Assembly (NCBI GenBank): GCA_035771175.1
Contig: CM069598.1
Location: forward strand, 13,374,539 to 13,438,538
Length of the DNA stretch: 64,000 bases
Reading direction: 5' to 3'
Origin: Paratinospora sagittata
Lineage: Eukaryota > Streptophyta > Magnoliopsida > Ranunculales > Menispermaceae
Shown: positions 2,769 through 62,918 of the stretch, piece by piece
Position numbering within the stretch: the first letter of the stretch is position 1
Layout of the letters: every line of letters begins with the position of its first letter
Program-made: the position numbers and the translations under genes
Notes under the pieces: model-generated
Told to the model about the DNA's origin: nothing
The model's input: only the letters and a program-made list of their open reading frames with translations
Databases searched by the model: none

Positions 2769-2939
2769 TGTCAAAACATTCTTTTTTTCATATATTTTCC
2801 TATGTATTTTCATAGGTTATATAGATTTTAAAAGAATAAAATCTAAACAAATCTTTGCTATTTTCAAACATTATTGTCTACAATTACGGCTAATCTATTT
2901 TTCAAACGTGATTGTCTACAATTACGGCTCACGCCAACA
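2769..2939 (-). repeat. Copia-1 3' LTR (171 bp)
   Basis: Direct copy of 5653-5823 at the end of the RNase H region, preceded (on the minus strand) by the polypurine tract. Confidence 0.9.
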
Positions 2940-2949
2940 CTCCCCCTCA

Positions 2950-5652
2950 AGTTGATGCATCGAGGTCTCGCATGCCCAACTTGTCAAGTGAGTTGTAGAG
3001 GTCCTTGCTATACAGCTTTTGTAAGGATATCCACCAATTGATCTTCAGATTTCACAAATGGAAACCTAATTGTTTTTGCTTCAAGATTTTCCTTGATGAA
3101 GTGTCGATCTACCTCCACATGTTTAGTACGATCATGTTGAATGGGATTATGAAAAATTGCAACTGCAGCTTTATTGTCACACAGAAGATCTGTCTCAGAG
3201 ATAGGAGCAAACCCAATTTCAGTAAGTAGCTTTCTTAGCCAGAGGAGTTCACAAAGACCTTTAGCCATTCCCCTAAACTCAGTTTCAGCACTTGACAAAG
3301 CTACCACTTTTTGCTTCTTGCTTCTCCAGGTTACAAGATTTCCTCCAACAAATGTAAAATATCCCGAGGTGGACTTTCTATCAGTGATATTACCTGCCCA
3401 ATCTGCATCCGTATATCCATAAACCATCAACTGACTGTTATGTTTTGAGAACATAAGCCCCTTGCCTGGAGATGACTTCAAGTATCGAAGTATTCGAATC
3501 ACTGCTTCCATGTGGCTTTTACTTGGATTATGCATAAACTGACTCACAACACTCACAGCGTATGCAATATCTGGACGAGTATGAGAGAGATAAATGATTT
3601 TACCAACTAATCTTTGGTATCTACCTTTATCTGTTGGTACTTGGTCTGGGTATTCTCTAAGTTTGTGATTCTGAACAATGGGGGTGTCTGCAGGTCTACA
3701 CTCCAACATCCCTACTTCGGTTAGCAAGTCTAATATGTATTTCCGTTGAGAAAGAAATATACCTTGCTTAGACCTAGCAACTTCAATTCCCAAGAAATAC
3801 TTGAGTCCTCCCAGATTCTTCATCTCAAATTCAGTTGTTAATTGCTTTTGAAGTAGAGAGATTTCTTCTTCATCATCTCCTGCAATAATCATGTCATCTA
3901 CATAGACTATCAGAGTCGTTACCTTACCCAACTGATGTTTTAAGAACAAAGTGTGATCAGAGTTACTTTGTTGGAAGCCATATTTCTTCATTGCCAAGCT
4001 AAGCCTTCCAAACCATGCTCGCGGTGATTGCTTCAGTCCGTACAATGCTCGCTGCAATTTACACACCACTCCATTATCTGAAGAAGCTATATAACCTAGA
4101 GGAATATCCATATACACCTCTTCTTGGAGGTCACCGTTGAGAAAAACATTTTTCACATCAAATTGATGCAAAGGCCAATCAAGATTTGCTGCAAGGGACA
4201 ACAACACTCTAACGGTATTCAACTTGGCTATAGGTGAGAAAGTCTTCTGGTAATCAACCTCATATGTCTGCGTATATCCCTTTGCTACTAGTCTCGCTTT
4301 GTACCGCTCAATAGATCCATCTGTTTTGTGTTTAATGGAGAACACCCATTTGCATCCCACTATCTGTTTTCCTTCAGGTAATGGAACAAGAGTCCATGTA
4401 TCATTTTTTAGTAGTGCCTTCATTTCTTCCTCTATAGCTCAGGTCCATCTTGGATTTGCCAATGCCTCATGAACATTAGTAGGAATCTGACATGTGGAGA
4501 GTTCCTGTGCAAAATTCTTAAGAGGTTCAGATAGTTTCTCGGTGGATACATAGTTAGAAATTGGATACCTCGACCTTCTTTCTTCAATATCTGGAAAATA
4601 TCTATTAGGTGGCTTGCCGCAATTATACCTAGGAGGTAAAACATATCCCACAGAATCATCTATGTCATTGATATCTAAGGGTGTAATAATGGTACTTACC
4701 TCAGGATTATTCTCAGGAGAGGATTCGGCTGACACTTCAGAGGAAGGGGATATAGGCTCGGTTTCAGATGTTGCATGCTTTGCATTCAGAAATACCTCAA
4801 TTTCACAATTTACATCGCCTGAGTTATCATTCGGCCCATCATGCTCATGCAGCTTCTCATTCCGATTCTGTTCCTCATGCTCATATGGCCCCTCAAGTCT
4901 GAACCAATCAAAATCATTTTGTGTCTCATGCTGGGACCAAGTCAACTCTTCATTATGTATCTCCCCCTGAAGAGGAGAAGGAGGTGTCATAGATGGAAAA
5001 AACATGTCAGTTTCCAAAAATTGAACATCCATAGTCACATAGAGTTTGCGGGTAGTAGGATCGTAACAACGGTACCCTTTTTGATGGATACCATAGCCCA
5101 AAAACACACATCGACGTGCACATGGATCAAGCTTACTGCGTTGGTTGTTGTGGAGATACACGTAGGCGACACACCCAAAGATACGAGGAGGAAGCATCAG
5201 CGCCGTAGGTATGGACACATGATCGGAAAGAGATTGAAGGGGTGTTTTAAATGATAAAACCTTGGATGGCATTCGGTTGTGAAGATGGACGGCAGTTGAG
5301 ACGGCATCGGCCCAAAAACGTTTGGGCATATTGGCACCAAGAAGCAGAGCACGGGCAGTCTCCATAATATGTCTATTCTTCCTCTCGGCGACACCGTTCT
5401 GTTGGGGTGTTTGTGAGCATGAAGTTTCATGAATTAAACCATGGTGGGAAAAATAAGATTGAAGATCTTTATTAACATATTCACCACCATTATCAGAGCG
5501 GAGAACCTTCATGGTGGCACCGTACTCAGTACCAACCATAGCATGAAATGTTTTAAAAACACCGAGAACTTCATCTTTGTGTTTTAGCAAGTAGAACCAT
5601 GTCATACGGGTACAATCATCCACAAAAATAACAAACCAACGAAAGCCAGACA
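2950..5652 (-). pseudogene. Copia-1 pol remnant: integrase core, reverse transcriptase, RNase H
   Basis: Reading on the minus strand, 5652-4439 encodes the integrase core (FVDDCTRMTW, LRSDNGGEY, TPQQNGVAERKN, a D-D-E pattern) and the variable linker. An in-frame TGA lies at 4439-4441, and the same frame then continues to 3008 with the reverse transcriptase (FDVKNVFLNGDL, YVDDMIIAGD active site) and RNase H (TDADWAG, ALSSAETEF). The frame stops at 3008 shortly before the expected C-terminus, where an indel turns the end of the conserved DILTKAV stretch into a stop. Apart from the missing N-terminal half, only these two lesions are visible, so the remnant is well preserved. Copia-2 at 12701-17407 is its closest relative in the window. 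Confidence 0.9.
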
Positions 5653-5823
5653 TGTCAAAACATTCTTTTTTTCATATATTTTCCTATGTACTTTCATAAG
5701 TCATATAGATTTTAAAAGAATAAAATCTAAACAAATCTTTGCTATTTTCAAACATTATTGTCTACAATTACGGCTAATCTATTTTTCAAACGTGATTGTC
5801 TACAATTACGGCTCACGCCAACA
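5653..5823 (-). repeat. Copia-1 5' LTR (171 bp)
   Basis: Direct copy of 2769-2939. It is followed on the minus strand immediately by integrase coding sequence, without a primer binding site. Confidence 0.9.
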
Positions 5824-5988
5824 AAAGCTATCATTGATAAGTGAAGACCGACCATTGTATATCAAACTATTATTAGCGATATCATCCCAAGCACAACACT
5901 TATATAGATTGCATTGCATTAACTTGTAAGTTTGCACACGGTTCAAAGGAAATGGTGCAATTTGATCCAAACGAAAAAAAAAAAATAC
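5824..5988 (-). other. Start of SRK-1 intron 1, interrupted by Copia-1
   Basis: The exon 1 donor (G|GTATTT on the minus strand) is at 5988. The intron continues to 5824, where the Copia-1 LTR begins. No transmembrane or kinase exon follows within the window. Confidence 0.6.
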
Positions 5989-7217
5989 CTAACACTGAAG
6001 CAGCCATCTTCACGTAGAGGTCATCTCCATTTCCAGGGATCGTTCTAATATCAATCAGATCCCCAAACCAAAGCAAGCAGCCATTACCTTGTTTAATGTC
6101 TGCAATTGCATATGCTCTACAAGAACAGTTCTTTAAGCACACATTCTCGTATTCTGCAAGGCCCATCTCCTTAATATCCATAGAAGTTCTTGTGTCCGGC
6201 AACTTCACACTTGTAAATTTTTGAAATCCTTCTCCCTTCCTGCAATCAAACAGCGTTCTCCGCACGCATCCACTTGACCAATTCATAGAATTCCATTCTT
6301 TTGGAAATTTCGGCACGAACCCATCCAAACACTGGCATATTGCTGCTGAGTTATCTACGGTACAACAGCCGTATGCACCACAGGAGTCCTAACCTGTACA
6401 CTGGTCTAAAGGCGCTATGCTGTATTGAAGCCAATTGTGGTTGTGATCGTTCCAACGAAGAAAAATAAGGAGGCCAGATTGATTCAGTGACACAAAATTT
6501 CCAACAGATGAGTAATTGTCGTCTAATTCCAAAGAGAAATATACTTCATCCTCATTAGAGATGAAATCATAAACAAACATTGGATTTGAATTCATGTAAG
6601 GAAACCCAGGAAATCGAATACCATTCCAATGCCCGGCTCGATAGATCTCTTCTTCTCCTTGCCACTCAACAAGTTGAGGGACTCCATGGGGATCAATCCC
6701 AAACTTATAGCCACCAGTAGAAGCATCTTCTGTGGTCTTCCATGAAAACAAGACCCGATTCAGACCAGTTTTTAAATCCCACCCCAACTTCATTCCTGGT
6801 AGCAATGTATCACCGGGATGATCAAAGCTTTTCCATAGGAATGAAGTTGAGCTACTACTGGGTTCCGTGGTTTCTTGGTTGAATTTGAGAACCAAACTAT
6901 GCTCCATGTTTGATTAAGTAGGATGAGCTTCCCCTCATTACTGATCTTTAAGATGCCATTGCTTTTGTTAAGAGGGTTTTCTCTGTTCGCGACCCAAACG
7001 ACTCCTTCATCACTTGATAACTCCTTGTACCATATTCCCAAGTAACCATTCTGGGATCTCCCACGATTGAAAAAACCCAATTCGAATCTGCCAGCTGCGG
7101 AAACTAAGGTCTGGCCATCGGTGAGATTTAGAGCTGGTGTAACAGAGTCCCCTCCTTCGGAGTTTCTGAAAAAAAACTAAGTATACAGGCAAAGAGAAGG
7201 AAAGGAAAGGCTTCCAT
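5989..7217 (-). pseudogene. SRK-1: exon 1 of a broken G-type lectin S-receptor-like kinase
   Basis: The exon encodes the extracellular half of a G-type lectin receptor kinase: signal peptide (ATG at 7217), bulb-type lectin domain (GIWYKEL, VVWVANRENPL), S-locus glycoprotein domain (GHWNGIRF), EGF-like segment (CQCLDGFVPKFP) and PAN domain (CLKNCSCRAYAIAD, GCLLWFGDL). The donor site is at 5988. It is broken in three places relative to SRK-2: a frameshift at the T-run near 7165 just after the signal peptide; a deletion near 6855 that removes the segment between VVAQL and SFLWKSFD (roughly 50 bp) and shifts frame; and an in-frame TAG near 6390 in the EGF-like region. The kinase exons are not in the window: Copia-1 and Gypsy-A occupy the place where they would be. 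It is a pseudogene of the same family as SRK-2 and SRK-3. Confidence 0.88.
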
Positions 7218-7540
7218 TGATCATTCATCTATTTCCTTTGCCATAACATTTATGTTCTCTTTGGTTACTTGCTTCGTCTATAAATAGTGAAGAGTTGATG
7301 GGGTCCATCCAATTGAGGATTGTTTCTCATATAAAATAGATCAAAGGTTCAGATCGTTGCGACAACGCTCAATTAATTAATAAATCATTCTGTCGTAACA
7401 GTTAACTGATCATCAGATTGATTATTTAAAAGTAGGTCTAAAGATTTAGGAGAATCTTACTTATATTCAATCAAAATGGTCCTTTTCTGTGACATCCATT
7501 GGTACAGACAGGCCCACAAGCAAGCCTAGACAACATTGCC
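7218..7540. other. Upstream region of SRK-1
   Basis: AT-rich sequence upstream of the SRK-1 start. A TATAAATA-like stretch lies at 7278-7287, about 60 bp from the ATG, but it reads best on the plus strand, so I do not call it a promoter. No other feature seen. Confidence 0.35.
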
Positions 7541-10488: not shown

Positions 10489-19608
<9,120 letters not shown>

Positions 19609-19724
19609 TAATTCTTCTATTTCTTTCTTCTTTGATTCATATATATGTAGGAATGAAGAGTTAGTGTGGCCATCCAGTTAAGGATTATTTCTGACGTTAA
19701 ATGGATCAAAGGTCTAGATCATTG
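19609..19724 (-). promoter_or_regulatory. Immediate upstream region of SRK-2
   Basis: The promoter is expected here from position only. A TATATATG-like stretch occurs at about 19638-19650, but it is only about 35 bp from the ATG, so I do not assign a TATA box. Confidence 0.3.
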
Positions 19725-21747
19725 TAACCTATTAATAAACCATTATGTGGCAACACTTGACTTCATTGACGGATTATTTAAATGAAGTCAATAGAATTAG
19801 TAGAATCAAATTTAATTCAATAAAAAAGGGTCCACCAATTTGACATTATAGCATTACCAAGGCACGGGCGAGGGAGTTTTCTCAAAGACTAGCTTCTTTG
19901 AATTATTGTTTGAGCCTTTAAAGATTAAACATTATTATTTTTAATATTTAATAGAAACTATGTATATGTATTAAAAGATAATTTTTTTTTCTTATTTATC
20001 TCTAATTAAGACAATTACTACGCTATCAAGGTCTCATAAATGCCAGTTGGGTACGGATGTATTAAAATGATAGTTTTACGTCAAATATGGACAAAAACAT
20101 CATAAACAATTTAAGTTGAAATCTCATTCTCAGCAGTGTAGCCGCATTGAAGGCCCCTTATATATATATAATATAATTAATATTTTATTAAATATAAATA
20201 TATTAAGTATTAATTTATTATTATTAGTTAAAAGTATTAGTAATACATTCATAACTCTAACTAATTACTGAGTTAAATATTAATTTATCAAATTATATAA
20301 GAAATTAAAATAATTTAATTAAATAACAAAAATTATTAAAATTATTAATTTATTAAAAAATAATATCCAATAAATTAGAGTCACAATCAAATAAAAAATT
20401 TACATATAATTAATTAAAAACACATTCTTCTGAGTTTGTCACTCAAGTGTCGATTTACAGCATTAAAAATAAAGTTATCAAATAATTTTTGAAAAATTTA
20501 GTTGGACCTTTTTTTTATAGTAATATTTAGTTGAATTCAAAATAACTACACATACATATCCTTTAGATATTAGTAATTAGCATATATTAAATTATGCAAT
20601 AAATAATCCAATGAATATACATGCATAGTTGCATATGTAGTTATAAATTTTTACAGTTAGATTAGTATTTTTTTATTGAAAGAGAAATTATAATCTAACT
20701 TGTAAAAATTACAACTACATGTGTGACTATACATGCTTATTCTTTGAATATTAGTAATTTATATATCTTAATTAATGAAATTTTTTTATACTTTGTCTAA
20801 AAAAAAAATTTAGTTTATCCTAAATAAAATTTCTAATTATGGCCTTATACGCCAGTACCTCATAAGAAAGGAATAACCTATTAATAAACCATTCTGTGGC
20901 AACACTTGACTTCATTGACGGATTATTTAAATGAAGTCAATAGAGTTAGAAGAATCAAATTTAATTCAATAAAAAAGGGTCCACCAATTTGACATTATAG
21001 CATTACCAAGGCACGGCGAGGGAGTTTTCTCAAAGACTAGCTTCTTTGAATTATTGTTTGAGCCTTTAAAGATTAAACATTATTATTTTTAATATATAAT
21101 AGAAACTATGTATATGTATTAAAAGATATATATTTTTTTCTTATTTATCTCTAATTAAGACTATTACTACGCTATCAAGGTCTCATAAATGCCAGTCGGG
21201 TACGGGTGTATCGAAATAATAGTTTTACGTCGAATATGGACAAAAACATCAAAAACAATTTAAGTTGAAATCTCATTCTCATTAATATCATAGTCTTTAA
21301 AGTAAAACATTACATCAGCAGTATAGCCGCATTGAAGGCCCCCTTATATATATATATATAATATAATTAATATTTTATTAAATATAAATATATTAAGTAT
21401 TAATTTATTATTATTAGTTAGAAGTGTTAGTAATACATTCATAACTCTAACTAATTACTGATGAGTTAAATATTATTTTATCAAATTATATAAGAAATTA
21501 AAATAATTTAATTAAATAACAAAAATTATTAAAATTATTAATTTATTAAAAAATAATATCCAATAAATTAGAGTCACAATCAAATAAAAAATTTACATAT
21601 AATTAATTGAAAACACATTCTTCTGAGTTTGTCACTCAAGTGTCGATTTACAGCATTAAAAATAAAGTTATCAAATAATTTTTAAAAAATTTAGTTGGAC
21701 CTTTTTTTATAATAATGTTTAGTTGAATTCAAAATAACTACGCATAC

Positions 21748-21909
21748 TGTTAAATTCACTGTCAATTTTCTCTCTTTTTCCATTCACAACCATCAAATAT
21801 ATATGTATTACAAAACACAAAGCCTAAAAATAAGGAAACATGTTATCAGGAAACCTGTTCTCAGAAAACATGTTCCGTAAAATATAAACCCAATAAAGAT
21901 ATCGTAATA
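21748..21909 (-). repeat. 3' LTR of the 2.0 kb non-autonomous element
   Basis: Direct copy of 23623-23784; next to the polypurine tract. Confidence 0.9.
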
Positions 21910-22044
21910 CCCTCCCTCAAGTTGGAGCGTGAAGATTCTGAACGCCCAACTTGGAGAGAAGAAACTCAAAGTTCGCTTTCTCCGATTTTTTTTTTTTTTT
22001 TTCTTTCGTAGAAAAAAAACGGATTTTGAGGAATGCACAACGTC

Positions 22045-22575
22045 GACTGACGCGTGCTTCACCATTCGCACGCTTCACTAATCACGCACGCTTCACTAAT
22101 CACATACGCTTCACCAAGCACACGCTTCATCGCGCGCACGCATCACCGCGAGCACGCATCACTAATCACGTACGCTTCACAACGCGCACGAATAACCCCG
22201 AGCACGCTTCACAACGCGAGCACTGTTCACCAAGCTCACGCTTCACTAATGCGCACGCTTCATCGCGAGCACACTTCACAACGCGCACGCATCACTGCGA
22301 GCACGCTTCACCACGTGCATTGTTTACCGACCGCACGCCTCACCAGTGCGCACGCTTCACCGCGAGCACACTTTACAACGCGCACGCATCACTGCGAGCA
22401 CGCTTCACCACGTGCGTTGTTCACCGACCGCACGCCTCACCAGTGCGCACGCTTCACCGCGAGCACACTTCACAACACGCGCATCACTGCGAGCACGCTT
22501 CACCACGTGCGTTGTTCACCGACCGCACGTCTCACCAGTGCACACGCTTCACCGCGAACACACTTCACCAATCAC
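22045..22575. repeat. GC-rich minisatellite (CACGCTTCAC-like, with a 95-97 bp higher-order unit)
   Basis: A short unit close to CACGCTTCAC / CGAGCACGCTTCAC is repeated dozens of times. From about 22299 a higher-order unit of 95-97 bp occurs about three times (GCACGCTTCACCACGTGC at 22301, 22398 and 22493). Because the unit lacks stop codons, three plus-strand frames stay open for about 90-215 codons with repetitive His/Arg/Ala/Thr composition; these are by-products, not genes. The base composition is sharply different from the AT-rich surroundings. Confidence 0.9.
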
Positions 22576-23149
22576 GTACACAAAAACACTGTGCTTAGAT
22601 CACTGTTCATAAATCACTGTCCAACGCGGTAGCGCTGTTCACGGCAGCCACCTTTCACGGCCGCCACTGTTCACAACCGTCGCTGTTTACAACCGCGCAG
22701 TTCACCTCCTCCATTGTTCACGGTCGCGGCAGCCACTGCCCAATGCACGCTTCCCAACGCTTGCATGCTTCCCAACATTGCACGCTTCCCAGCGCTGCAC
22801 GGAAGCTCTGAAATGGGCTGCTTTATTAAAGCTACCCACTTATAATCTTGTGAAGAGAGCCATATTAAAAAAAATGGAGCACTAGAGAATTTTGGGCAGT
22901 GGATATATTAAAAAAAAGGAAAGTGGATATATATAAAAAAAGAAAAGAAAGTGGGGTTATTAAGGAAATTTGATGTTCAGAATCTTGGGCTTAAGAGAGA
23001 AGGGAGCTTTTTAGAGAGGTTGGGGGGAGAAACAGTGGGAGAGAAACAGAAGAAGACAACGAGAAGTTCTTGTTGAAGCTCAAGGGCCGTTACATACAGC
23101 TTTTCATCTTCTGATTCATTTTCTTCTTGTTCGTCGAGAGAGAGCGAGA

Positions 23150-23310
23150 CGGTTTCACTGTTCCGTCGCTCTTCACGACCGTGCTGTTCACCTCCTCCAC
23201 TGTTCACGGCCGCACTGTTCACGGCAGCACGGGAATCACAACAGAGAAATTACTGTTCAAGCCGGGGAATTGTTCATGCCGGCCCCTGGTCACGCCGGCC
23301 ACTGTTCACC
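23150..23310 (-). repeat. GAACAGT motif cluster in the leader of the 2.0 kb element
   Basis: On the minus strand GTGAACAGTG or close variants recur at least six times in about 150 bp. Similar motifs occur at 22610-22740 and in the leader of Copia-3. Confidence 0.7.
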
Positions 23311-23622
23311 GAGATCCGAAAAATCTCGTCTCTTCTGAATACCAAATCAATTCACACTATACAAGTCATCAAAATCAGAACTCTCCAACAGATCCAACCA
23401 ATCCCTCAACAGATAAACTCGATCAACCACAATTTCAAAGAACAATCAGGAATGAAAACCTTCAGAATCGCAGTATCGGAGCTGGGGTTTGAGAGATCGG
23501 AGTTGTGGCGGATGGCTTCACACACACATCTCGTTCTCAAACCCCAGCTCGGATCTTGAAGATCCACGTTCTTCAACAGATCCAAGATCTGGAAATCCCT
23601 TGCTCTCTTGGCTCTGATACCA

Positions 23623-23784
23623 TGTTAAATTCACTGTCAATTTTCTCTCTTTTTCCATTCACAACCATCAAATATATATGTATTACAAAACACAAAGCCT
23701 AAAAATAAGGAAACATGTTATCAGGAAACCTGTTCTCAGAAAACATGTTTCGTAAAATATAAACCCAATAAAGATATCGTAATA
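23623..23784 (-). repeat. 5' LTR of the 2.0 kb non-autonomous element
   Basis: Direct copy of 21748-21909; next to the primer binding site. Confidence 0.9.
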
Positions 23785-24322
23785 CATACATATCCTTTAG
23801 ATATTACTGATTAGCATATATTAAACTATGCAATAAATAATCTAATGAATATATATGCATAGTTACATATGTAGTTATAAATTTTTGCAGTTAGATTAGT
23901 ATTTTTCTTATTGAAAGAGAAATTATAATCTAACATGTAAAAATTACAACTACATGTGTGACTATACATGCTTATTCTTTAAATATTAGTAATTTATATA
24001 TCTTAATCAATGAAATTTTTTTTATACTTTGTCTAAAAAAAAATTTTAGTTCACTCTAAATAAAATTTTTAGCTATGGCGCTATACGTCAGTACCTCATA
24101 ATAAAGGAAAATGAGGGAAAATATCATATAAAATTACAATTATGTTTATATTTGACTTAAATTATGTAGTTAATCATATAAAAATTTAAAATCTATATAC
24201 AGAAATAAATCAACTTAACTCGAATTGACCCAAAGTCATTAAGACGGTGGATTGAATTGGGTTAAGAGGTCTTATTGGATTGGGTAGATTTAATATCAAT
24301 GGAATTTCAACTTATTTGGGTT

Positions 24323-26413: not shown

Positions 26414-27656
26414 ATCTTTACTTTTGGTGAAAATCTCAATAATTAATTTGCTTCAATCTCATGTTTTTGTTAGGAGTGTTCATCGAGACCGATCAAATCG
26501 AAAAATTGAACCAAACCGATGCGATCGGTTCGATTCGGTTCAGTTTTTGTGAGGTTTGATTCAGTCCGTTGGATTTAAGCGTTGGAAAATCCAATTTAAT
26601 ATTATGGGTAATATTGTCATTTTTCTCTAACCCTAGCCTCCTATATCGTTGTTGAACCATTTATGGAAAAAAAAAAAAAAAAACGCCATTTCCATTTTGC
26701 TTTCACGGTTTAACCTCCGTTGCGCCGTTGTTGCCATAGCTCTGCAAATTTTCTCGCTACCCTAGCTCCAAAATCGCCATTTCTCTAACGCTTCTCTTCC
26801 TCGCTGCAACTTCTTTGTTCTTCCCCCAACCTCGATTTCTTCTCTTCCCAAAATTGCAAACCCCCCACCGCGATTCTTCTCTTACCAAAATCGCAAACCC
26901 CCATTTGCGATTTCTTCTCCTCCCAAAACTGCAAACCCCAACTGCGATTCATCTCTTCCATTTTGCAATTTCCTTCAACCCCTGCGATTTCCATTTTTCA
27001 ACCTGCAATTTTTTCATTCTCCTTACTCTATCTCCGCCGGTTGCCGCTACCCAACTTCAAACGTCGATTTCTTTGACACCCATTCAAGGTATCATTTTCT
27101 TCATTCTCCATTCTTCAAGATTTCTTTATTTTTTTATGCGGCCAGTGTAGTGTGTTTTACTTGTTTTTGTCACATTTTTTGAATCTGTAACTGATTTGGG
27201 ATTTCAATGTCATTGATTTTAGTTTCTATTTGGTTGTGATTTCAACCTCAGTAATTTGTTTGTCATCAACCTCAGTAACTGATTTGTGATTCCTTCGTGA
27301 TAGTTTTTGAATTTGTAACTAATTTGTAATTCTTTAGTTTGCTACAAAGTAAATATTGAGAAGCCAATGCCTAACATAAAAGGAGTAGAAGGTGATATTT
27401 TTTTAATCTGTAACTGATTTGTTTTTGTTTGTTTACTGTTTAGTGATGAAATTCTATTCTATATTCATGGTTTTCTGGGATTATATTTTAAACAAATCTG
27501 CATATATTATGGGTTAATTTTGCATGAGCTCTAGGCTTTTCCTACAAATCTATGTTTAAAGAATTAAAAGTTGAATATACCTTGATTCAATAGGAGGAAA
27601 AGAATCTTGTTTTTTAGTTACCCAATTTTATTTTATTTTTTTCTTATGCATGTATA

Positions 27657-27657
<1 letters not shown>

Positions 27658-27714
<57 letters not shown>
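27658..27714. repeat. (ATT)n microsatellite, left copy, about 19 units
   Basis: Lies just upstream of the left transposase start; the same locus in the right copy is at 46729-46848. Confidence 0.95.
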
Positions 27715-27715
<1 letters not shown>

Positions 27716-27748
27716 TTTTTTTTTTTATGGATGTGTATTATTTTTTAG

Positions 27749-28706
27749 ATGTCTACAAATGATACCCTAGTTGGGACATTGACAGCTAGAGAAAGTGGAG
27801 CACCTTCAAATGAAGCAGGAGTTGGAGATGCAAATGTCGTGCGCACTGATGTGAAGGAACCAGCCATGTCTACAACAAAAATAAAAATAAAAAAAGTAGC
27901 AGGCCACCCTCTCTTGTTTGGGAGCAGTTTGGTAAATCATTAGATGAAAAAGGAAAAGTAGAATTTGCATCATGTAACTACTGTGGTAGAGAATATCATT
28001 GTCTAAGTAAAAATGGTACTAGCACATTGACCAATCACTTGATGCAATGTGTTAAGTATCCATACAATTCCAAGAAACAAAAGTCCTTATCATTCCAAAA
28101 ACCCGACCAAGAAGATGATTGTCAATTGACAACATGAAAATTTGATCAAGTATATATTCGTAAAACACTTGTCGAGATGATTATCACCGATGAGTTGCCA
28201 TTCACATTTGTAAAGGGTGAAGGGTTTCGAAAGTTTTGTTATGCAATGCAGCCTAGATTTACACTTGTGTCAAGGACCACCATAGCTAGGGATTGCTTAG
28301 AACTCTATGCACATACAGTTGCAAAACATTTCAACAACTTTGCCTTACTACAGACTCATGGACTTCATTGCAAAATATGAATTATATGTGTCTCACTGCT
28401 CGTTATATTGATGATGAATGGAATTTGCATAAAAAATCATAAACTTTTGCTTAATTTCTAGTCATAAAGGTGAGACAATTGGTAAGGCTATTGAGATGTG
28501 TTTGCTTCATTGGGGAATTGAAAAGATTTTTACAATCACAGTTGATAATGCTAGCTCTAATGATGTTTCTGCTTCATATTTGAAGAGGAAAATAAATAAT
28601 TGGAAAGGGAGTGTCTTGGATGAGAATTATCTTCATATGAGATGTTGTGGGCATATATTGAATTTAATTGTAGGTGATGGTTTAAGCATCATGAATGAGT
28701 CAGTAA
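27749..28706 (+). pseudogene. hAT-1 transposase, left partial copy
   Basis: N-terminal half of a plant hAT transposase. After the start (MSTNDTLVGTL) a frame change at about 27905 leads into a BED zinc finger (CNYCGREYH...TNHLMQC). Further conserved pieces follow: VEMIITDELPFTFVKGEGF, a region encoding TDTW in a shifted frame near 28350, and IFTITVDNASSNDVSASYL and HMRCCGHILNLIVGDGLS. It breaks at 28706, where Gypsy-A LTR sequence begins. The frameshifts and stops match those of the right copy at 46876-48952, so both copies descend from one already broken gene. Confidence 0.85.
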
Positions 28707-29299
28707 CCCACTGGGCTTTCAAGCTTACCTTATTTTTCACATACAGGTACTTAGAAAATAAAGTAGCAAGTTGTGACGTCGTTCAGTGATAGGGATGAGA
28801 TGGTAATCTGGATAAGATTTTAATTAGTGAATGAACTAATTACTTGTTTGACTTTGTGAACTTTTTATTTGAAAATGGTTGTATTGACACTAGAAATTTT
28901 GATAAAACCTTATTATGGTTATTGAAGAGATCATGATTTACTTTAAATGTATGTGCTTTGGACTTGAACGTGTTAATTCTACTTGATGAATATATTTAAA
29001 ATGTTGTGTTCATAATGAATGGACAAGGGCAAGTACCTTCACAATTCAATATGAAAATTTGTATAGTGGAATTATGTGGTCCTTAGCATGAAGATGAAAG
29101 GGTATTCGTTTATCTTAATCAGTAAGTTGGTTAGAAGAATACAAATTCATATTTTTACAATTTTACTATCTATATAATGGTTATAGGTTAAGATAGATGG
29201 ATACGATTAACATCTCGATTTTTAGTAATCTTTCTCGATAAAATTTAAATATTCATTATTTTACTTAAAATTTAAGTTTTGAAAAATCGGGGTGTTACA
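28707..29299 (+). repeat. Gypsy-A 5' LTR, only the last 593 bp
   Basis: Matches 45744-46334 of the complete LTR and ends GGGGTGTTACA, directly before the primer binding site. Its left edge abuts hAT-1 transposase sequence. Confidence 0.9.
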
Positions 29300-38219: not shown

Positions 38220-40425
38220 ATATATGTGTGTATGTGTAGTAAAGAAGATGATACCTATGGGATCATCTTCTATGGGTGCTTACAAGTTAAACATTGGAGT
38301 TGATGGCTTAATTTATGGGGTTGGTTAATTAAATATGTGAATTGAGTGTATAGAAGAAGAAAAAGAGGAATAAAGGAAGAAAAAAAATAAAATAATAATT
38401 AATTACTGTTCATTTACGGGTACTGTTTATGAAACAGTACCAGAAACAGTACTCAGAAGAAAGACAAAAAAAAATATAAAAAAAAATCAAACTTAACGAA
38501 GTTGCTGGAGAAGCACAACGAAGGAGAAAACGAAAGAAAGAAGAAGAAAGAGGAGGAAAGAAAAGAGAAACGCGTGATTCGTGCGAAATTCGGACTCGCG
38601 GTAAGTGATTTTCACTCTATTTCTTTGTGAAATTACTATCTAAGCTAGATGTAAACTTTCTAGCGGAGTAATTTTTACTGTGGGAGCCGTTTTACGGCGT
38701 TTTGACAAATTGGAGTTTTGACAAATTGAAGTTTTGACCCAATGTGAATGAAAATTCGCTAGAAAGGTAGAAAAATACTCCTTAGACGGTAGGGACCCCG
38801 AATATGTGGTTAGATTCTATTTCACGAGTTTTGGAGACCGTTTGACAATTTTAGTACAATGTACATGTTTCGAATGAATAGTGATGTAAATAGTACTATG
38901 AACAGCGATATAAATAGTACTATGAACAGTGATGTGAATAGTCTTATAAACAGTGATATGAACAGTGAATAGTCACAATCACTCCATAATTCAATTTGAA
39001 AATATCTAGATTGACCACAGAAACGAGATAGTAGTTTCTTTAACTGCTTATGAGTCCTAAATGGATTTATTATTAGTGATTTGAAGTGAGTTGAGAAATT
39101 AAAGATATATGAATAAATGAAATTGAATTATGGAGTGATTGTGACAGGTTAAATTAGTTGGATTTAACTTGGAGCTGGACTCGAAAGCGACGATGATTGG
39201 GTTTAAGTTGAACGTGTTGTACTGTGAGTATAGTTTCCTTGATTTGGTTCTTGTATGACATTGTACGAATATAAAATGTTTGATTGTATGCATGTTATAT
39301 TTGAACGGAAAGAAACTGAATATGAGGTAATAAATGTGGCAAGAATTCCCGAAGGATTTGATTTTATATTGAATTATTATCCTAGGAAAGGCCAATATGT
39401 TGCTGAGGCATTGAGCAGAAACAAACTGAAACTGGAGTAGTAACTATCCGTTAGCCAGAAATGGAGATTATTTGTGAGTGAGAGTTACAGTTATGAGTGT
39501 ACTCTCTATTACTCCATGTGTTGATATTTGTGCTCGGATGCATGTTCAGCTAATTGATACTCATATTTTATATATAATGCATTGAGTTTTATGGATCATG
39601 CAAACTGATTTTAGCAATTGGAGTTTGTAATGATGTCATTTCGTTAGGAATTAGACCCGGATGAGGTTTTGCGAGTCCTCATTGTCAGTAGGCCTGTCCT
39701 AACAAAGGTTGCGATCCTTGAAATGACTGTGAATTGGGTAATGAGAGGCTGTGACTACCTTGTAACGGCCATACAAGGGTTAGACTCGCTCTCTTGCCTT
39801 GCGGAGGAGGGAGATTGTGCATTGTGTTATTGTATTGTAAACTCATGCAATTTATGTTGTTGACATGTATAATATATTCATTGAATGATGCATGTGTTGA
39901 ATAAGTGTTTGAAATGATTTTAAATGTCATATTTCTCTAAATGTATATAATTGTCATCTCAAGAACTATATTCACTGAGCTGTTGTTTGCTCACCTCATT
40001 TCCTCCAATATTTCAGGTATTGAGTCGAAGGGAAAAGGAAACTCCGTGAGTGATAATCACGTGAGCCTTCATCTGGTATGTGTATGTACGCTTGAAGGAA
40101 ATAGCTTATATTGTTAGTTTGATATGTATACTTATCACACATTATATATATATGTAATATCATCTAGATGGGATGTGTGGGCATATATATAGCTTAATAT
40201 ATTGGATGATGAAATGAAAATGTGATGTGTGAATGAATGAAATGATTATAGTGATCTATGTTGGACTTGATTTGTGGTATATTAGGAAAAAAATTTCTGT
40301 AAATATTGGGAAGGATTGTGAGACTACGTGAAGGCTGACAGTGTATTATATACTGTATATGGGTATGTACAGTGTATAGTACACTATGCCGGTCATGACA
40401 TCAGCCTACGTCAGGGGCGTCGTGA
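38220..40425 (+). mobile_element. LTR-B: LTR-like segment of another Gypsy element
   Basis: The right end reads GGGGCGTCGTGACA then ACTTGGT, the usual way a plant Gypsy LTR ends and its primer binding site begins. It then jumps straight into Gypsy-A reverse transcriptase sequence ([18 protein letters not shown]). The left part has GAACAGT/ACTGTTC motif clusters (38405-38460, 38880-38975). The left boundary is a guess. A short reverse-transcriptase/RNase H-like scrap lies inside it (39321-39440). Confidence 0.5.
39321..39440 (+). pseudogene. RNase H-linker scrap inside LTR-B
   Basis: A plus-strand frame reads FDFILNYYPRKGQYVAEALS followed by RNK. This resembles the conserved Gypsy segment between RNase H and integrase ([16 protein letters not shown] in Gypsy-A at about 41710-41765). 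Only about 35 residues survive. Confidence 0.55.
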
Positions 40426-44861: not shown

Positions 44862-46334
44862 TTGTTTAAACATCCCACCACTATATATATGTATATATCT
44901 CTACACTCATAATCGTTCTTATGAGTATTTATATTAACAAACGTAATATACGTGTACAGGTTGAGTACTAGGTGTAACAAGGAATTTAAGTGATTTGGAA
45001 TTTAGCGATTAAGGTGGGGAAGATTTTATGCCTTTACAATGTTTTATTTTGATATATAGATAGGAATGTTAAATTAATTAGGTCTATAGTATTATTAGAT
45101 TGCTCTTGCATGTCTATTTTACATGATTTTATATATACCATGTTGTGATTGTTAACTATGATGATATATGTGTCAGCATGATCTCTTATTCTGATCAAAT
45201 GATAATTGGATGCATGCAATTCATGTGGTAATTGGATTCATTTGTTTATTATAATGCCCGATGATGAAATACATGACTTGAGAATATTGACATAGTAAAG
45301 TTCATGCGTTAATACTATTATATTTGGCATTGTGACATGATACCACGCGTAGTGGAGTTTGAATATGTCTTGTGAATGCAATTAATATCATACTTATGTT
45401 GTATGTATGGTGTGACATCACTAAAGAACACAATTAAGATAAGAATCACACATATGGGGCAGTTATTCCAAGGAATATCGCCAATGTTTATTATGGGGTA
45501 GTTATTATAAAGAATATCGCCAATATTTATTATGAGGCAGTTATTCATAATGAATATCGCCAACGAATTTCTGATTTTGGGTAGTGCCACCCTATGTTTG
45601 ATTTACTAAAGGTACGTGATTTAGAACGTGATAAAATTCTCGACTCAAACAATCTAATGTTGCAACGATTAATGTGTGAAACTTGTTTGTAATGCTCTTG
45701 TGTATATATCATGATAAAATGTTGTGAATTGTTTAGATGATCCACTAGGCTTTCAAGCTTACCCTATTTTTCACATGCAGGTACTTAGAAAATAAAGTAG
45801 CAAGTTGTGACGTGGTTTAGTGATAGGGATGGGATGATAATTTGGATAAGATTTTAATTAGTGAATGAGCTAATTACTTGTTTGACTTTGTGAACTTTTT
45901 ATTTGAAAAGGGTTGTATTGACACTAGAAATTTTGATAAAACCTTATTATGATTATTGAAGGGATCATGATTTACTTTAAATGTATGTACTTTGGACTTG
46001 AACGTGTTAATTCTACTTGATGAATATATTTAAAATGTTGTGTCCATAATGAATGGACAAGGGCAAGTACCCTCACAATTCAATATGGAAATTTGTATAG
46101 TGGAATTATGTGGTCCTTAGCATGAAGATGAAAGGATATTCGTTTATCTTAATTAGTAAGTTGGTTAGAAGAACATAAATTCATATTTTTGCAAATTTTA
46201 CTATCTATATAATGGTTATAGGTTAAGATAGATGGATACGATTAGCATCTCGATTTTCAGTAATCTTTCTCGATAAAATTTAAATATTCATTATTTTACT
46301 TGAAATTTATGTTTTGAAAAATCGGGGTGTTACA
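43424..46334 (+). repeat. Gypsy-A 3' LTR, complete, 2911 bp
   Basis: Starts TGTAATCC and ends GTGTTACA, followed by hAT-1 sequence. It contains internal short tandem arrays: a unit of about 43-50 bp near 43445-43590, one of about 39 bp near 43951-44061, and one of about 45 bp near 45450-45570. There is an (AT)n run at 44833-44860. Short frames within it are chance. Confidence 0.9.
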
Positions 46335-46726
46335 TCAACCTCAATAACTGATTTGTGATTCCTTCGTAATAGTTTTTGAATTTGTAACTATTTTGTAATT
46401 CTTTAGTTTGCTACAAAATAAATATTGAGAAGCCAATGCCTAACATAAAATGAGTAGAAGGTGATATTTTTTTAATCTGTAACTGATTTGTTTTTGTTTG
46501 TTTATGGTTTAGTGATGAAATTCTATTCTATATTCATGGTTTTCTGGGATTATATTTTAAACAAATCTGCATATATTATGGGTTAATTTTGCATGAGCTC
46601 TAGGCTTTTCCTACAAATCTATGTTTAAAGAATTAAAAGTTGAATATACCTTGATTCAATAGGAGGAAAAGAATCTTGTTTTTTAGTTACCCAATTTTAT
46701 TTTATTTTTTTTCTTATGGATGTATA

Positions 46727-46848
<122 letters not shown>

Positions 46849-46875
46849 TTCTTATGGATGTGTATTATTTTTTAG

Positions 46876-48952
46876 ATGTCTACAAATGATACCCTAGCTG
46901 GGACATTGACAGCTGGAGAAAGTGGAGCACCTTCAAATGAAGCAAGAGTTGGAGATGCAAATGTCATGCACACTGATGTGAAGGAACCAGCCATGTCTAC
47001 AACAAAAATTAAAATAAAAAAAGTAGCAGGCCACCCTCTCTTGTTTGAGAGCAGTTTGGTAAATCATTAGATGAAAAAGGAAAAGTAGAATTTGCATCAT
47101 GTAACTACTGTGGTAGAGAATATCATTGTCTGAGTAAAAATGGTATTAGCACATTGACCAATCACTTGATGCAATGTGTTAAGTATCCATACAATTCTAA
47201 GAAACAAAAGTCCTTATCATTCCAAAAATCCGACCAAGAAGGTGATAGTCAATTGACAACATGAAAATTTGATCAAGTATATATTCGTAAAACACCTGTC
47301 GAGATGATTATCACCGATGAGTTGCCATTCACATTTGTAGAGGGTGAAGGGTTTCGAAAGTTTTGTTATGCAATGCAGCCTAGATTTACACTTGTGTCAA
47401 GGACCACCATAGCTAGGGATTGCTTAGAACTCTATGCACATACAATTGAAAAACATTTCAACCACTTTGCCTTACTACAGACTCATGGACTTCATTGCAA
47501 AATATGAATTATATGTGTCTCACTGCTCGTTATATTGATGATGAATGGAATTTGCATAAAAAATCATAAACTTTTGCTCAATTTCTAGTCATAAAGGTGA
47601 GGCAATTGGTAAGGCTATTGAGATGTGTTTGCTTCATTGGGGAATTGGGAAGATTTTTACAATCACAGTTGATAATGTTAGCTCTAATGATGTTTCTGCC
47701 GCATATTTGAAGAGGAAAATAAATAATTGGAAAGGGAGTGTCTTGGATGAGAATTATCTTCATATGAGATGTTGTGGGCATATATTGAATTTAATTGTCG
47801 GTGATGGTTTAAGCATCATGAATGAGTCAGTAAGCCGAATTCGAGGAGCTATTAAATATGTGAGGGGTTCTCCATCTACATTACAAAAGTTCAAGTCATG
47901 CATTGAACTTGAGAAAATAACATGTAAAAGCTCTTTCTGCTTAGATGTACCAACTAAATGGAACTCAACTTATATGATGTTGGAAGTGGCTATCAAACTT
48001 CGAAAAGCATTTGAAAGGTTACAAGAGCAAGATAGAGATTTTATATCTGAAGTTTAAAAGGGGGTTCCTCAAGAGGAACATTGGGAAGAAGCTCGTGCCC
48101 TTACAAAGTTTTTAAAATAGTTTTATGGAGCTACAAAATGCTTCTCAAGATCGCATTATGTCACAACCAATGCATATTTTCATGAAGTATGTGCAATTGA
48201 ATATCTTTTACAAGAATCAATAGATGATGGTGATTATGTTTTGAGTACAATGGCAGTGAAGGATGAAGGAGAAGTTTGATAAATATTGGGAAGATATTAA
48301 TAAGGTGAACATGATCTTGTTGGTTGCAGTGGTCCTTGAGTCTCTGTACAAGTTGAAGTATGTGAGCTATTGCTACAGTGGCTTGTATGTATTTGAGCAA
48401 GTTGAAGAGATGAGTAAAAAAGTGAAGGAAGTTTTTGATAAGTTGTATGTGCACTATCAGTTCCATTCTAGTTCTTCTACTTCAACAAGAACAACTCAAC
48501 CTAGATCATCACATGATATAGAGGTTGATGTACCAGATGAAGATGGGCAAGTCAAAAAGCAGAAATTTGGTTTTCAAAAACTTTTGGAGGAAGAAGAAAA
48601 TACATTTCATAAATCAGAGGTAGATCGATATTTAGAAGAAGGATGTGAAAAAGAATGTGATCATTTTGATATTTTGAATTGGTGGAAAGTTAATTCCTCT
48701 AAGTATCCAATCATTTCATTAATTGCAAGAGATGTATTAGCTGTTCCAGTTTCTACAGTTGCCTCAAAGTCAACTTTTAGCACTGAAAAACGTGTGCTTG
48801 GACAATTTCGTAGTTCGTTTACTCCAAAGATAGTGGAGGCTCTCATTTGTGCCCAAGATTGGCTACGTGCTTCACCAAGTTCGATAGAAATTGAAGAAAG
48901 ATTGGATGAAGTTGAAAGTATTGAATCAGGTTCAATCTCTTTTAATTATTAA
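46876..48952 (+). pseudogene. hAT-1 transposase, right copy with C-terminal dimerisation domain
   Basis: It has the same N-terminal pieces as the left copy, then continues past the left copy's breakpoint: SRIRGAIKYVRGSPSTLQKF, FCLDVPTKWNSTYMMLEVAI, and the hAT C-terminal dimerisation domain in 48263-48952 (FDILNWWKVNSSKYP, VSTVASKSTFST, RVLGQFRSSFTP). Lesions: a frameshift near 47030, a stop near 47262, a frameshift near 47500, TAA at 48055, a TAG near 48118 and a frameshift near 48262. Non-functional, but the C-terminal 229 codons are open. Closest in style to the RICESLEEPER/DAYSLEEPER group. Confidence 0.88.
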
Positions 48953-55154: not shown

Positions 55155-55828
55155 CTGAATTGTGGAACATAAGATTACAAATAATATATATAAACATCTC
55201 TAAATTAAAGTGTTTTTGTTTTAAAAACATTTTAAAAAAGCTTTTTCTAACAGGGCCAATGTGTATTAGCACTACGGTTTCTTGTCATTGGATTGCCTTA
55301 AATAATGACACTTAAAAATTAAGTCACTTACATTTTTCCTAACTAAAGGCTACATTTTCCATTATAGTTGCTTACAACGACTCAAGGAGATCCAATGACA
55401 AGGAAGGCAGTGCCCGCATTTTGTTTTACCTAGTGGCGCTCAACGCAAACAAAATTGTCAGAGAAATGTAACCTTCAGGTAAGGAAATATGTTCGAGTTG
55501 TACTGATCTAATCTCTAAGTTATGGCGTTTTACTATAGAAGGCATTGGTATTAATCCATGAGCATTCAACTCAAAGAATTACTCATAACCCTTGAACACC
55601 CACGTATGCTCTGCTATGGCATTTGTGATATGATCTACTTAAAACATTAGTTCTCATACTACTTGTCAATATAAGCCTAGATCTCAACTAATTAAGATCA
55701 ATATGGACTCTTGACTAATGACTTAAATGTGGAGTTTTACTATAATAAGAAAGAGATGCCTATAAACTTATTATATATGTCTACACAAGAAGCCAACATA
55801 AAGGGAAACAATAAGAAAAGAAAATTAC
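55155..55828 (-). other. SRK-3 intron 1
   Basis: AT-rich intron without recognisable insertion. Confidence 0.6.
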
Positions 55829-56583
55829 CTAATTCTGAAGCTGCCATCTTCACATATATTTCATCTCCATTACCAGGAATTGTTCTCATATCAATTAGAT
55901 CCCCAAACCAAAGCAAGCATCCATTGCCTTCTTTAATGTCTGCCATTGCATAAGCTGTGCAAGAACAATTCTTCAAGCACACTTCCTTGCATTCTTCAAG
56001 CACACTTCCTTGCATTCTTCAAGGCCCATCTTCTTAACAACCACAGAATTCCTTGTGTCCGGCAATTTTACGCCTGTAAATTTTTTAAATCCTTCCCCCT
56101 TCCTGCAATCAAACATTGTTCTTCGAACACACCCGCTTGACCAATTCATCGAATTCCATTCTCCTGGAATTCTCGGTACGAACCCATTCAAACATTGGCA
56201 TACTGCCGCCGAGTTATCAACGTTACAAGAACCATATGCACCACATGAGTTATAATATACACACCGGTCTAAAGGCGCTATGCTATAAGGAAACCAATTG
56301 TGGCTGCGATCATTCCAACCATTAAAAGTAAGGTAGCCAGATTGATTCAACGACACCAAATTTCCAACAGAGGACCAGTCGTCGAATTCCAGAATGAAAT
56401 ACACTTCATCCTCATTAGAGATGAAGTCATAACCAAACATTGAGTTTGGATTCATGTAAGGAAACCCGAGAAATCGAATACCATTCCAATGCCCAGCCCG
56501 AAAAACCTCACTCTCTCTTTGCCATAAAACAAGTTGAGGAACCCCATGAGGATCTATCCCAAACTTTAAGTCACCTGAAGAAG
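55829..56583 (-). other. SRK-3 exon 1, 3' part (S-locus glycoprotein, EGF-like, PAN)
   Basis: Resumes GDLKFGIDPHGVPQLV and runs through GHWNGIRFLGFPY to the PAN domain, where the 23-bp duplication shifts the frame. The original frame resumes as CSCTAYAMADIKEGNGC and ends at a G|GTAATT donor. Confidence 0.9.
55969..56014. repeat. 23-bp perfect tandem duplication in SRK-3 exon 1
   Basis: TTCTTCAAGCACACTTCC followed by TTGCA, twice in a row (55969-55991 and 55992-56014). SRK-1 and SRK-2 have one copy. Confidence 0.95.
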
Positions 56584-56716
56584 AATTGTTCCTACATAGG
56601 TGGACCCCACAAATCTCCACCTCCACCTCATGTGGAACAGAGCTCCTCCACATCTGCAATCTCTTTACAGATAGCAAGCTTCTTTCAAAAAACTGTTGCT
56701 GCCTCCAGTAGTGCCC

Positions 56717-60713: not shown

Positions 60714-60894
60714 TAAGACCGAAAATATGTATGACGCCGAAAAGTGCTGAAAAAATGATAAACAACTCCAACTAAGCTATATCAATAACTTAGGAGTTGA
60801 ATCTGCAGAAACGGATTGCACGGATGCGTCCGGAACGGTCGAAAATGGTGGAAACGAGTCTGACTTTGCTGAAATCAGACAAAAAATTAGCCGG

Positions 60895-61270
60895 ATAAAC
60901 AGTATCAGGCCGCGGATGAACAGTATCGGGCTGTATGAACAGTGACGGGCCGAAACAAATGGGCCTGATGAACAGTGGCGAACCGACCGGGCTGGGCCGA
61001 AATGAACAGTGGCTGACCGAATGGGCTGGGCTGAGATGAACAATGAAACTGCGTGGGCTGGGCCGCAGATGAACAGGGCGGATTATGTGGGCTGGACAGA
61101 GGATGAACAGTGCGGACTGTTTGGGCTGGACCGCGGATGAACAGTGAGGTTTGTGTGGGCTGGACCGCAGATAAACAGTTCCGGATCTGAGTCGGGTTCG
61201 GATCGGATGAATAGTGTCACGGATGAACAGTGCCGATGATGAACAGTGTCGGGATGAACAGTGTCAGACA
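60895..61270 (-). repeat. GAACAGT motif array in the Copia-3 leader
   Basis: Read on the plus strand, TGAACAG occurs ten times, mostly as GATGAACAGTG, and several close variants (ATAAACAGT, ATGAATAGT, ATGAACAAT) lie between, with GGGCTGGGCCG / GGGCTGGACCG spacers. It lies between primer binding site and gag start. Confidence 0.85.
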
Positions 61271-61508
61271 AAAAAAAATTGCAAAATACAAAGATCAAAC
61301 TTTGATCGGCTCTTGCGAACTCGTTTCTTGTCCGTTTTTCTCGCCGTTTGTTGCGTTGGACTCCTGGAAACAAGAGCTACCTCCATGGGTGATCAGAAAA
61401 TAGTTCCGATCACTGTTGCAAAATTTCGAAAATTTCGACGCTATCTCGAAAAATTCGACGGAGGGTCTGTTTTTCTTCCAAAACCTAACCTTGGCTCTGA
61501 TACCAATT

Positions 61509-61861
61509 TGTTGTGCAGAATCGGAGTAAAGCATGAAAGAAAAAATAGAACAACAAATTTAACGTGGTTCGGCAAATTGCCTACGTCCACGGGAGGCAGC
61601 ACTCTTTTATTAGATCACCCTTAGGTGGATCTTACAGATTAGATCTCTTAATAGATCTCTCAGAATAGAACTCACTGAACATGAATTTATGAATGAAGTA
61701 AGGCCCTATTTATAGGAGTATTCAGGGGTATTTGTGTAATTAAAATAACATATTTTAATAGTATTAAAATCAAACTAAGCGGCTGTTGACGGAGTTGGTG
61801 GCCGCCCTCATGGGCGGCCACCAACCAATTAATTTTGGTTCCTACATAGGTGGACCCCACA
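61509..61861 (-). repeat. Copia-3 5' LTR (353 bp)
   Basis: Similar in parts to the LTR at 62919-63335; both contain GGTTCGGCAAATTGCCTACG near their element 3' end. Confidence 0.88.
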
Positions 61862-62437
61862 TAAGTCACCTGAAGAAGCATCTTCTGTGGTCTTCCATGA
61901 AGACAAGAACCAGTTCGCACCAGTTTTGAAGTTGCATCCTAACTTCATGCCTGGTAACAATGTATCACCAGGATGATCAAAGCTTTGCCACAAGTAGTTG
62001 TTGGGGTTGTTGTCATTCTGTTCTTTCACAACTAGATTTCCTGTGTTAAGTAGCCGAGCTGCTATTACTACTGGGTTATGTGTTTTCCTAGATGAATTTG
62101 TGAACCAAACTATGTTGTTTCCTGCTTGGTTAACTAGGATGAGATTTCCTTCAGTACTTATCATTAGAACTCCATTATTTTTGTTAAGAGGGCTCTCTCT
62201 ATTGGCAACCCAAACGATTCCTTGATATCTAATTGATATCTCCTTGTACCATATTCCTAAGTAGCTGTTCTGGGATTTTCCAAGACTCAGAAAACCCAGT
62301 TCGAATCTGCCACCATCGGAAACTAAGGTCTGGTCATCGGTGAGATTTAGACCTGGTGTAACAGAGTCCCCTGCTTTGGTGATTCTGAGAAAACTGAGAA
62401 TTGAAACACAGAGAAGAAGGAAAGAAAGCCGTTCCAT
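61862..62437 (-). other. SRK-3 exon 1, 5' part (signal peptide and lectin domain)
   Basis: An open frame of about 190 codons ending KTTEDASSGD at the Copia-3 junction. Lectin-domain motifs GIWYKEIS, VWVANRESPL and WQSFDHPGDTLLPGMKLG are intact. Confidence 0.9.
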
Positions 62438-62918
62438 TGATCATTCCTCTATATCTTTGAAATAAATGATATGGGAATGCTTTACTCTATCTACAAATTT
62501 CACCATCTAGATAGATTAAATTCTATTGCATTTGCCTCAGCCTCTCAATTATTTGTCATCATATGACTACTTATCAGTTCATCCAACCGAACAAAGGCTG
62601 CTAGTTGAAACTTGAAAACCATTCTTCCCTTCACCTCCTCTCCCTTTAATTATTATTATTATTATTATCATAAGTGGTCGTGCGTAGCGTGATTAAATTG
62701 ATTATTGATTATATTAAGATTTCTAGATAAGAGTGAGGTTTTCTTGCTTTTCAATTTATTCTTAAAAAACACATAAATAAAAAATAATAGAAGCGAATGA
62801 CTTCAACCAATAATTAAAAGTGACAAATATAAATTAAAAATTCAATGTTCATGAATAATTAAATAATTAACTAACAAACCAATATTTAAACGTTAAAATT
62901 AATAACTTATAATGCCAA
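62438..62918. other. Upstream region of SRK-3
   Basis: AT-rich 5' flank between the SRK-3 start and Copia-5. It contains a short TTATTATTATTATTA tract near 62650. No gene. Confidence 0.5.

What the first reader, a model, noticed from the sequence alone, without database searches (positions are those of the whole stretch)
21748..23784. Very young non-autonomous LTR element whose interior is a GC-rich minisatellite
The 2.0 kb element has 162-bp LTRs with one visible difference, a perfect CATAC duplication, a primer binding site and a polypurine tract, but no protein. About 530 bp of the interior is a CACGCTTCAC-type minisatellite with a 95-97 bp higher-order unit. Typical TRIM or LARD elements are not built on a minisatellite. 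The near-identical LTRs mean it moved recently, so a helper must exist or have existed recently.
Basis: partly seen in the sequence, partly recalled or inferred. Interest (0 to 1): 0.75.

Follow-up and report, generated by a model that had tools for sequence, protein, structure and literature searches.

The report
Gutted copia retrotransposon carrying a minisatellite
A short plant jumping gene that appears to have lost its protein genes carries a stretch of short repeats where they would lie; it landed recently, next to a duplicated copy of the same site that still lacks it.

Summary
A 2,037-bp LTR element lies at 21748-23784: 162-bp LTRs with one difference, CATAC on both sides, a primer site, a polypurine tract, no accepted Pfam domain, and a 516-bp minisatellite with a 97-bp higher-order unit. 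Its sense strand is minus. Three things are new. (1) A tandem duplicate of the flanks (19725-20873) is an empty-site paralogue: it reads through one CATAC where the element sits in the other copy, so insertion with target duplication is shown. (2) The last 24 codons before the polypurine tract resemble the C-terminus of a copia pol in the same window, with the same frame and stop; the element is therefore most likely an internal-deletion derivative of a coding Ty1/copia element. (3) The minisatellite has the 15-16-bp period of GTGAACAGTG units in the element's own leader; I infer that it grew from them. A coding copia element in the window has a leader array with the same word, oppositely oriented. 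LTR elements with internal tandem arrays, some without pol, are already published (gypsy). The genome search did not complete (13 tries), so copies and a helper remain unseen. Interest is modest.

The parts
21743..21747 (.). target site duplication CATAC, left
21748..21909 (-). 3' LTR (162 bp)
21910..21923 (-). polypurine tract AACTTGAGGGAGGG; it contains the stop codon TGA (21917-21919) of the pol tail
   Evidence: compare elements A and B
21920..21991 (-). probable relic of the copia pol C-terminus (24 codons, ...LLSKLGVQNLHAPT*)
   Evidence: tblastn E 0.003 to the last 24 residues of element B; nucleotide shuffle test
22056..22571 (-). minisatellite block III, 16-bp period, 97-bp higher-order unit in 22175-22568
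22635..22801 (-). array block II: GTGAACAGTG-type units (22635-22727) and a 17-18-bp unit (22744-22801)
23158..23309 (-). array block I in the leader, GTGAACAGTG-type units; 23163-23213 is 86% identical to 22677-22727
23475..23554 (-). leader hairpin, arms 23475-23494 and 23535-23554, 19 of 20 complementary
23610..23622 (-). primer binding site TGGTATCAGAGCC
   Evidence: (12-base word)
23623..23784 (-). 5' LTR (162 bp)
23785..23789 (.). target site duplication CATAC, right
19725..20873 (.). tandem duplicate of the flanks without the element (empty-site paralogue; single CATAC at 20551-20555)

Best explanation
A plant Ty1/copia LTR retrotransposon with short LTRs lost nearly all of gag-pol by internal deletion. 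It kept what minus- and plus-strand priming need: LTRs, primer site, a leader with a hairpin, and the last codons of pol overlapping the polypurine tract. GTGAACAGTG units of its leader were duplicated and amplified into the minisatellite that now fills the place of gag-pol, probably by strand transfer or slippage during reverse transcription. Proteins from a coding relative then copied the RNA and inserted the DNA into one half of an existing tandem duplication, making the CATAC duplication. Shown: the structure and the insertion into a duplicated site. Supported: that the insertion is younger than the duplication, and descent from a coding copia element. Inferred: that the array grew from leader units, how it grew, and the helper.
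For: Structure. Empty-site paralogue 19725-20873, junction at a single CATAC. LTR pair 1 of 162 different against 43 of 1147 for the duplicated flanks, Fisher p 0.035. Pol tail: of 13 window retroelement protein pieces searched against the element, the best match (E 0.003 for that query) was the last 24 residues of element B's pol, in frame, with the same APT-stop before the purine tract. Over the 36 nt upstream of the tract, 21 are identical to A and 21 to B, each reached by 1 of 20,000 shuffles; with 45, 60 and 90 nt, 5 to 56 of 20,000 reach it. With part of the tract included, the A and B tails are the two best non-self places in the window (30 of 45; next 28, on the element's own opposite strand; scan). 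Of the 120 relatives of B's pol listed (out of 7,568), 60 end in KLG-x5-A[PS]x, as this tail does. Repeat blocks I, II and III share a 15-16-bp period and GTGAA starts, with intermediate units; one unit in block III still reads GTGAACAGTG.
Against: The pol tail is short. Corrected for 13 queries its E-value is about 0.04, and the next match, of another pol piece to the repeat's opposite strand, is at 0.014. When the 36-mer without the tract is slid over the whole window, two other places score 22-23 (one overlaps its own opposite strand) and two more score 21, the same as A and B, so the case leans on position and frame. No related copy with gag-pol was seen. LTR ends are TA...CA in the sense direction, not TG...CA. 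The link from leader units to the minisatellite rests on period and a short core.
Confidence: 0.75

Rival explanations
1. A long-standing non-autonomous family in which the minisatellite has been a stable part of the mobile unit over many insertions. This does not exclude an older origin by deletion.
For: Three neighbouring 97-bp units differ from each other at 3 of 95, 4 of 97 and 7 of 95 sites, more than the LTRs at 1 of 162 (p 0.14, 0.067 and 0.0045); a fourth unit differs from these three at 16, 16 and 19 of 95. So the array probably predates this insertion. CpG is not depleted in the array (observed/expected 1.72).
Against: The 14 differences among the three close units are all transitions, so fast decay of methylated C could explain the excess (the fourth unit also has transversions). 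No second copy was found in what could be searched: the window, viral contigs, and protein data through spurious frames. It is longer than the TRIM size in PMC4717578.
Confidence: 0.4
2. The minisatellite expanded in place after the element inserted.
For: Minisatellites are unstable (general knowledge), and the three close 97-bp units are alike.
Against: The units have diverged at least as much as the LTRs, significantly so for one of three pairs.
Confidence: 0.12
3. The element captured a host minisatellite or gene fragment.
For: The array is much richer in GC (0.59) than the window (0.36).
Against: Units of the same type lie in the element's own leader. Pfam and two protein searches gave nothing accepted, but these cannot see non-coding DNA.
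Confidence: 0.1

Closest known systems
Ogre/Gmr9 and Retand (Ty3/gypsy) elements with internal tandem arrays (PMC3305785, PMC7004042, PMC11963269)
   Same: Tandem arrays inside an LTR element; some array-bearing Ogre copies lack pol through large deletions (PMC7004042, passage).
   Different: Their arrays lie between pol and the 3' LTR of gypsy elements; here the array lies upstream of the pol tail in a 2-kb copia-type element.
Short-LTR Ty1/copia families of grapevine such as Noble and Tvv1 (PMC2576258, passages only)
   Same: LTRs of 147-502 bp in ten families, 5-bp target duplications, Noble leaders starting TGGTATCAGAGCC and varying from 269 to 695 bp, and young copies without an intact gag-pol frame.
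   Different: The canonical elements are 4,086-5,519 bp; the Noble leader varies by large deletions and insertions, and no minisatellite is mentioned (0 hits for the word).
TRIM elements (PMC4717578; passages and Background section)
   Same: No proteins, target duplications of 4-6 bp; 11 of 289 subfamilies had larger related elements.
   Different: Under 1,000 bp by that paper; this one is 2,037 bp with a repeat interior.

Membership tests
LTR retrotransposon | direct LTRs, target site duplication, primer site, polypurine tract | tested here: met
   empty-site paralogue
LTR retrotransposon | LTR ends TG...CA (typical, not required) | tested here: not met
   ends are TA...CA in the sense direction. 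That such ends occur in plant copia elements is recalled; one search listed 2 papers, neither read
Ty1/copia | integrase before reverse transcriptase in pol | not testable with these tools
   gag-pol is missing from this element
Ty1/copia | pol C-terminus with its stop inside the purine tract, as in copia elements A and B (RVT_2 pieces in both) | tested here: met
   short match, see evidence against
TRIM | total length under 1,000 bp (PMC4717578) | tested here: not met
   21748-23784 is 2,037 bp
LARD | long LTRs and a large conserved non-coding interior (recalled) | tested here: not met
   LTRs are 162 bp; conservation among copies not tested
Ogre/Retand (Ty3/gypsy) | tandem array between pol and the 3' LTR | tested here: not met
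   the array lies upstream of the pol tail
Retrozyme | hammerhead ribozyme (PMC4918200, listing only) | tested here: not met
   0 Rfam matches in the window at gathering score
Cassandra | 5S RNA-like sequence in the LTR (PMC10853983, listing only) | tested here: not met
   0 Rfam matches in the window at gathering score

The most novel reading that the evidence does not exclude
The word TGAACAGTG forms separate arrays in three places of this window: this element, the leader of a coding copia element (in the other orientation), and 38874-38968. It may be a cis-acting module that copia elements share or exchange, for example for RNA packaging or for adding length, and here it was amplified until it took the place of gag-pol.
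Probability: 0.1. Interest if true: 0.6.

Novelty: new variant of a known kind. Interest (0 to 1): 0.3.

Why it matters
It is a compact case of a gutted copia element whose genes appear to have been replaced by a repeat of the type in its own leader, with a built-in empty site. If copies exist, their array lengths would show whether retrotransposition itself makes minisatellites, a mechanism that the Ogre literature proposes but calls yet to be determined (PMC7004042, Discussion).

Tried and rejected
Hidden gene: 27 of 27 frames of 40 aa or more gave no accepted Pfam domain. tblastn of 13 window retroelement protein pieces, with filters off and a cut-off of 10, gave many chance matches; I accept only the pol tail (E 0.003; next 0.014 and 0.049). 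Retrozyme or Cassandra: 0 Rfam matches. Copies elsewhere: 0 matches of the LTR/primer junction in viral contigs; no protein match for the antisense frame through the minisatellite (4,151 candidates, none at E 0.01) or through the leader (29 candidates, none). A three-unit TGAACAGTG pattern found 4 viral contigs; none of the 4 holds the primer-site word, and I take them as unrelated. RNA folding of the array was not remarkable (z -1.78, 6 of 100 shuffles as good); the leader folds somewhat better (z -2.63, 1 of 100), and its hairpin (19 of 20) exceeds the best of 60 single-base shuffles (16 of 20). LTR similarity to the LTRs of A, B and T1 was weak (best E 0.013, to A). In one search an indexing slip voids the aligned identity counts and the shuffle test (they compared the wrong offset); one search replaces them; the sliding scan stands, but its query includes part of the purine tract.

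Full report
Observation. The element is real and its coordinates are right. LTRs at 21748-21909 and 23623-23784 (162 bp) differ at one base, CATAC flanks both ends, and the minisatellite spans 22056-22571 with a 97-bp higher-order unit over 22175-22568. The primer site TGGTATCAGAGCC and the purine tract AACTTGAGGGAGGG both lie on the minus strand, so the RNA reads from 23784 down to 21748. In that direction the order is 5' LTR, primer site, leader with a hairpin, repeat block I, a spacer, repeat block II, the minisatellite, a pol tail, purine tract, 3' LTR. The LTRs read TA...CA. None of 27 frames of 40 aa or more gave an accepted Pfam domain.

Insertion. A self-comparison of the window showed that 19725-20873 is a tandem duplicate of the DNA around the element: 19725-20555 matches 20874-21747 (92.0%) and 20550-20873 matches 23784-24109 (92.9%). 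When the two flanks are joined with one CATAC, they align to the duplicate straight through the site. The base before CATAC is A in the duplicate and G in the left flank. Gaps aside (9 gap blocks), the duplicates differ at 43 of 1147 sites and the LTRs at 1 of 162 (Fisher p 0.035). This supports insertion after the duplication. With recalled plant substitution rates of 1.3e-8, 7e-9 and 4e-9 the LTR difference gives 0.24, 0.44 and 0.77 million years; the 95% ranges run from 0.01 to 4.3 over the three rates.

Origin. Just before the purine tract the minus strand reads LLSKLGVQNLHAPT-stop. Element B in the same window (12701-17407; copia gag, RVT_2) ends LDKLGVRDIYAPT-stop at the same place, and A (2769-5823; integrase and RVT_2) ends LDKLGMRDLDAST-stop (for the frames). 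Of 13 window protein pieces searched, the best match to the element was B's last 24 residues, E 0.003; allowing for 13 queries this is about 0.04, and the next match is at 0.014, to the opposite strand of the repeat. Identity over the 36 nt before the tract is 21 to A and 21 to B, each reached by 1 of 20,000 shuffles; over 45, 60 and 90 nt, 5 to 56 of 20,000 reach it. In a scan of the whole window four other places score 21 to 23 of 36; with part of the tract included A and B are the best non-self places. So the case rests on position and frame as well as on identity. Among the 120 listed relatives of B's pol (of 7,568), 60 end in the pattern KLG-x5-A[PS]x; where a source named an organism, these were plants such as Vitis, Prunus, Rosa, Malus, Magnolia, Aristolochia and Acer.

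Repeat. The minisatellite units (about GTGAAGCGTGCKCGCG) share their 15-16-bp period and GTGAA start with units in the leader (GTGAACAGTGGCGGCC and similar), and intermediate units exist. A 51-bp piece of block I is 86% identical to a piece of block II. I infer that leader units were duplicated and amplified. Three neighbouring 97-bp units differ from each other at 3 of 95, 4 of 97 and 7 of 95 sites, all 14 of them transitions; a fourth differs from these at 16, 16 and 19 of 95, with transversions. Against the LTRs p is 0.14, 0.067 and 0.0045 for the three close pairs. This leans to an array older than the insertion, but faster decay of methylated C could do the same.

Wider pattern. TGAACAGTG occurs 16 times in the window against 0.49 expected, in three places: this element (6), 60936-61263 (8) and 38923-38967 (2). 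The second is the leader of a coding copia element, T1 (Retrotran_gag_2 and RVT_2), between its primer site (61494-61505) and its gag-pol frame; there are 14 units of the type CTGTTCAT, and the word runs in the opposite orientation. Whether this is shared descent, exchange or chance preference I cannot say.

Literature. Tandem arrays inside plant LTR elements are established: Gmr9/GmOgre (PMC3305785, abstract and two sections), Ogre in Lathyrus, including copies without pol (PMC7004042, passages and the Discussion), Retand (PMC11963269, passages), and by title only a Zea element of 1995 cited there. Gmr9, Ogre and Retand are gypsy elements with the array after pol. Grapevine copia families give matching LTR sizes, primer site and variable leaders (PMC2576258, passages). 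TRIM size and relatives are from PMC4717578 (passages and Background). In the listings, some of them capped (25 of 35, 15 of 27, 10 of 16 and 8 of 41 papers shown; none found), I saw no title or abstract start describing a copia element whose genes are replaced by a repeat of its own leader's type. Most subscription papers are not held, so this is weak evidence of novelty.

Limits. The window's genome could not be searched in 13 tries, so copy number, a helper and polymorphism are open. The host plant is not identified.

Noticed in passing
60880-61265: The leader of a coding copia element (T1) holds 14 CTGTTCAT-type units between primer site and gag.
   Followed up: partly
38874-38968: A third short array with TGAACAGTG, outside any element I delimited.
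   Followed up: no
27264-29299 and 45742-47836: Two similar pairs of blocks (93% and 96%) occur in swapped order at the two ends of a gypsy element (gag and RVT_1). The frames at 28433 and 47560 look hAT-like by eye only; Pfam gave nothing for the one at 47560. Not explained.
   Followed up: partly
5974-7479, 18250-19829, 55793-56586, 61829-62465: Related S-domain lectin receptor gene pieces; 18253-19677 has B_lectin, S_locus_glycop and PAN_2, 55976-56716 has S_locus_glycop and PAN_2. The last two pieces appear split by T1.
   Followed up: partly
21833-21874 and 23708-23749: A 15-bp unit is repeated 2.8 times inside each LTR, possibly a promoter element.
   Followed up: no
12701-17407: Copia element B has 193-bp LTRs 97.9% identical and a 93-bp tandem repeat at 17007-17192.
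   Followed up: no
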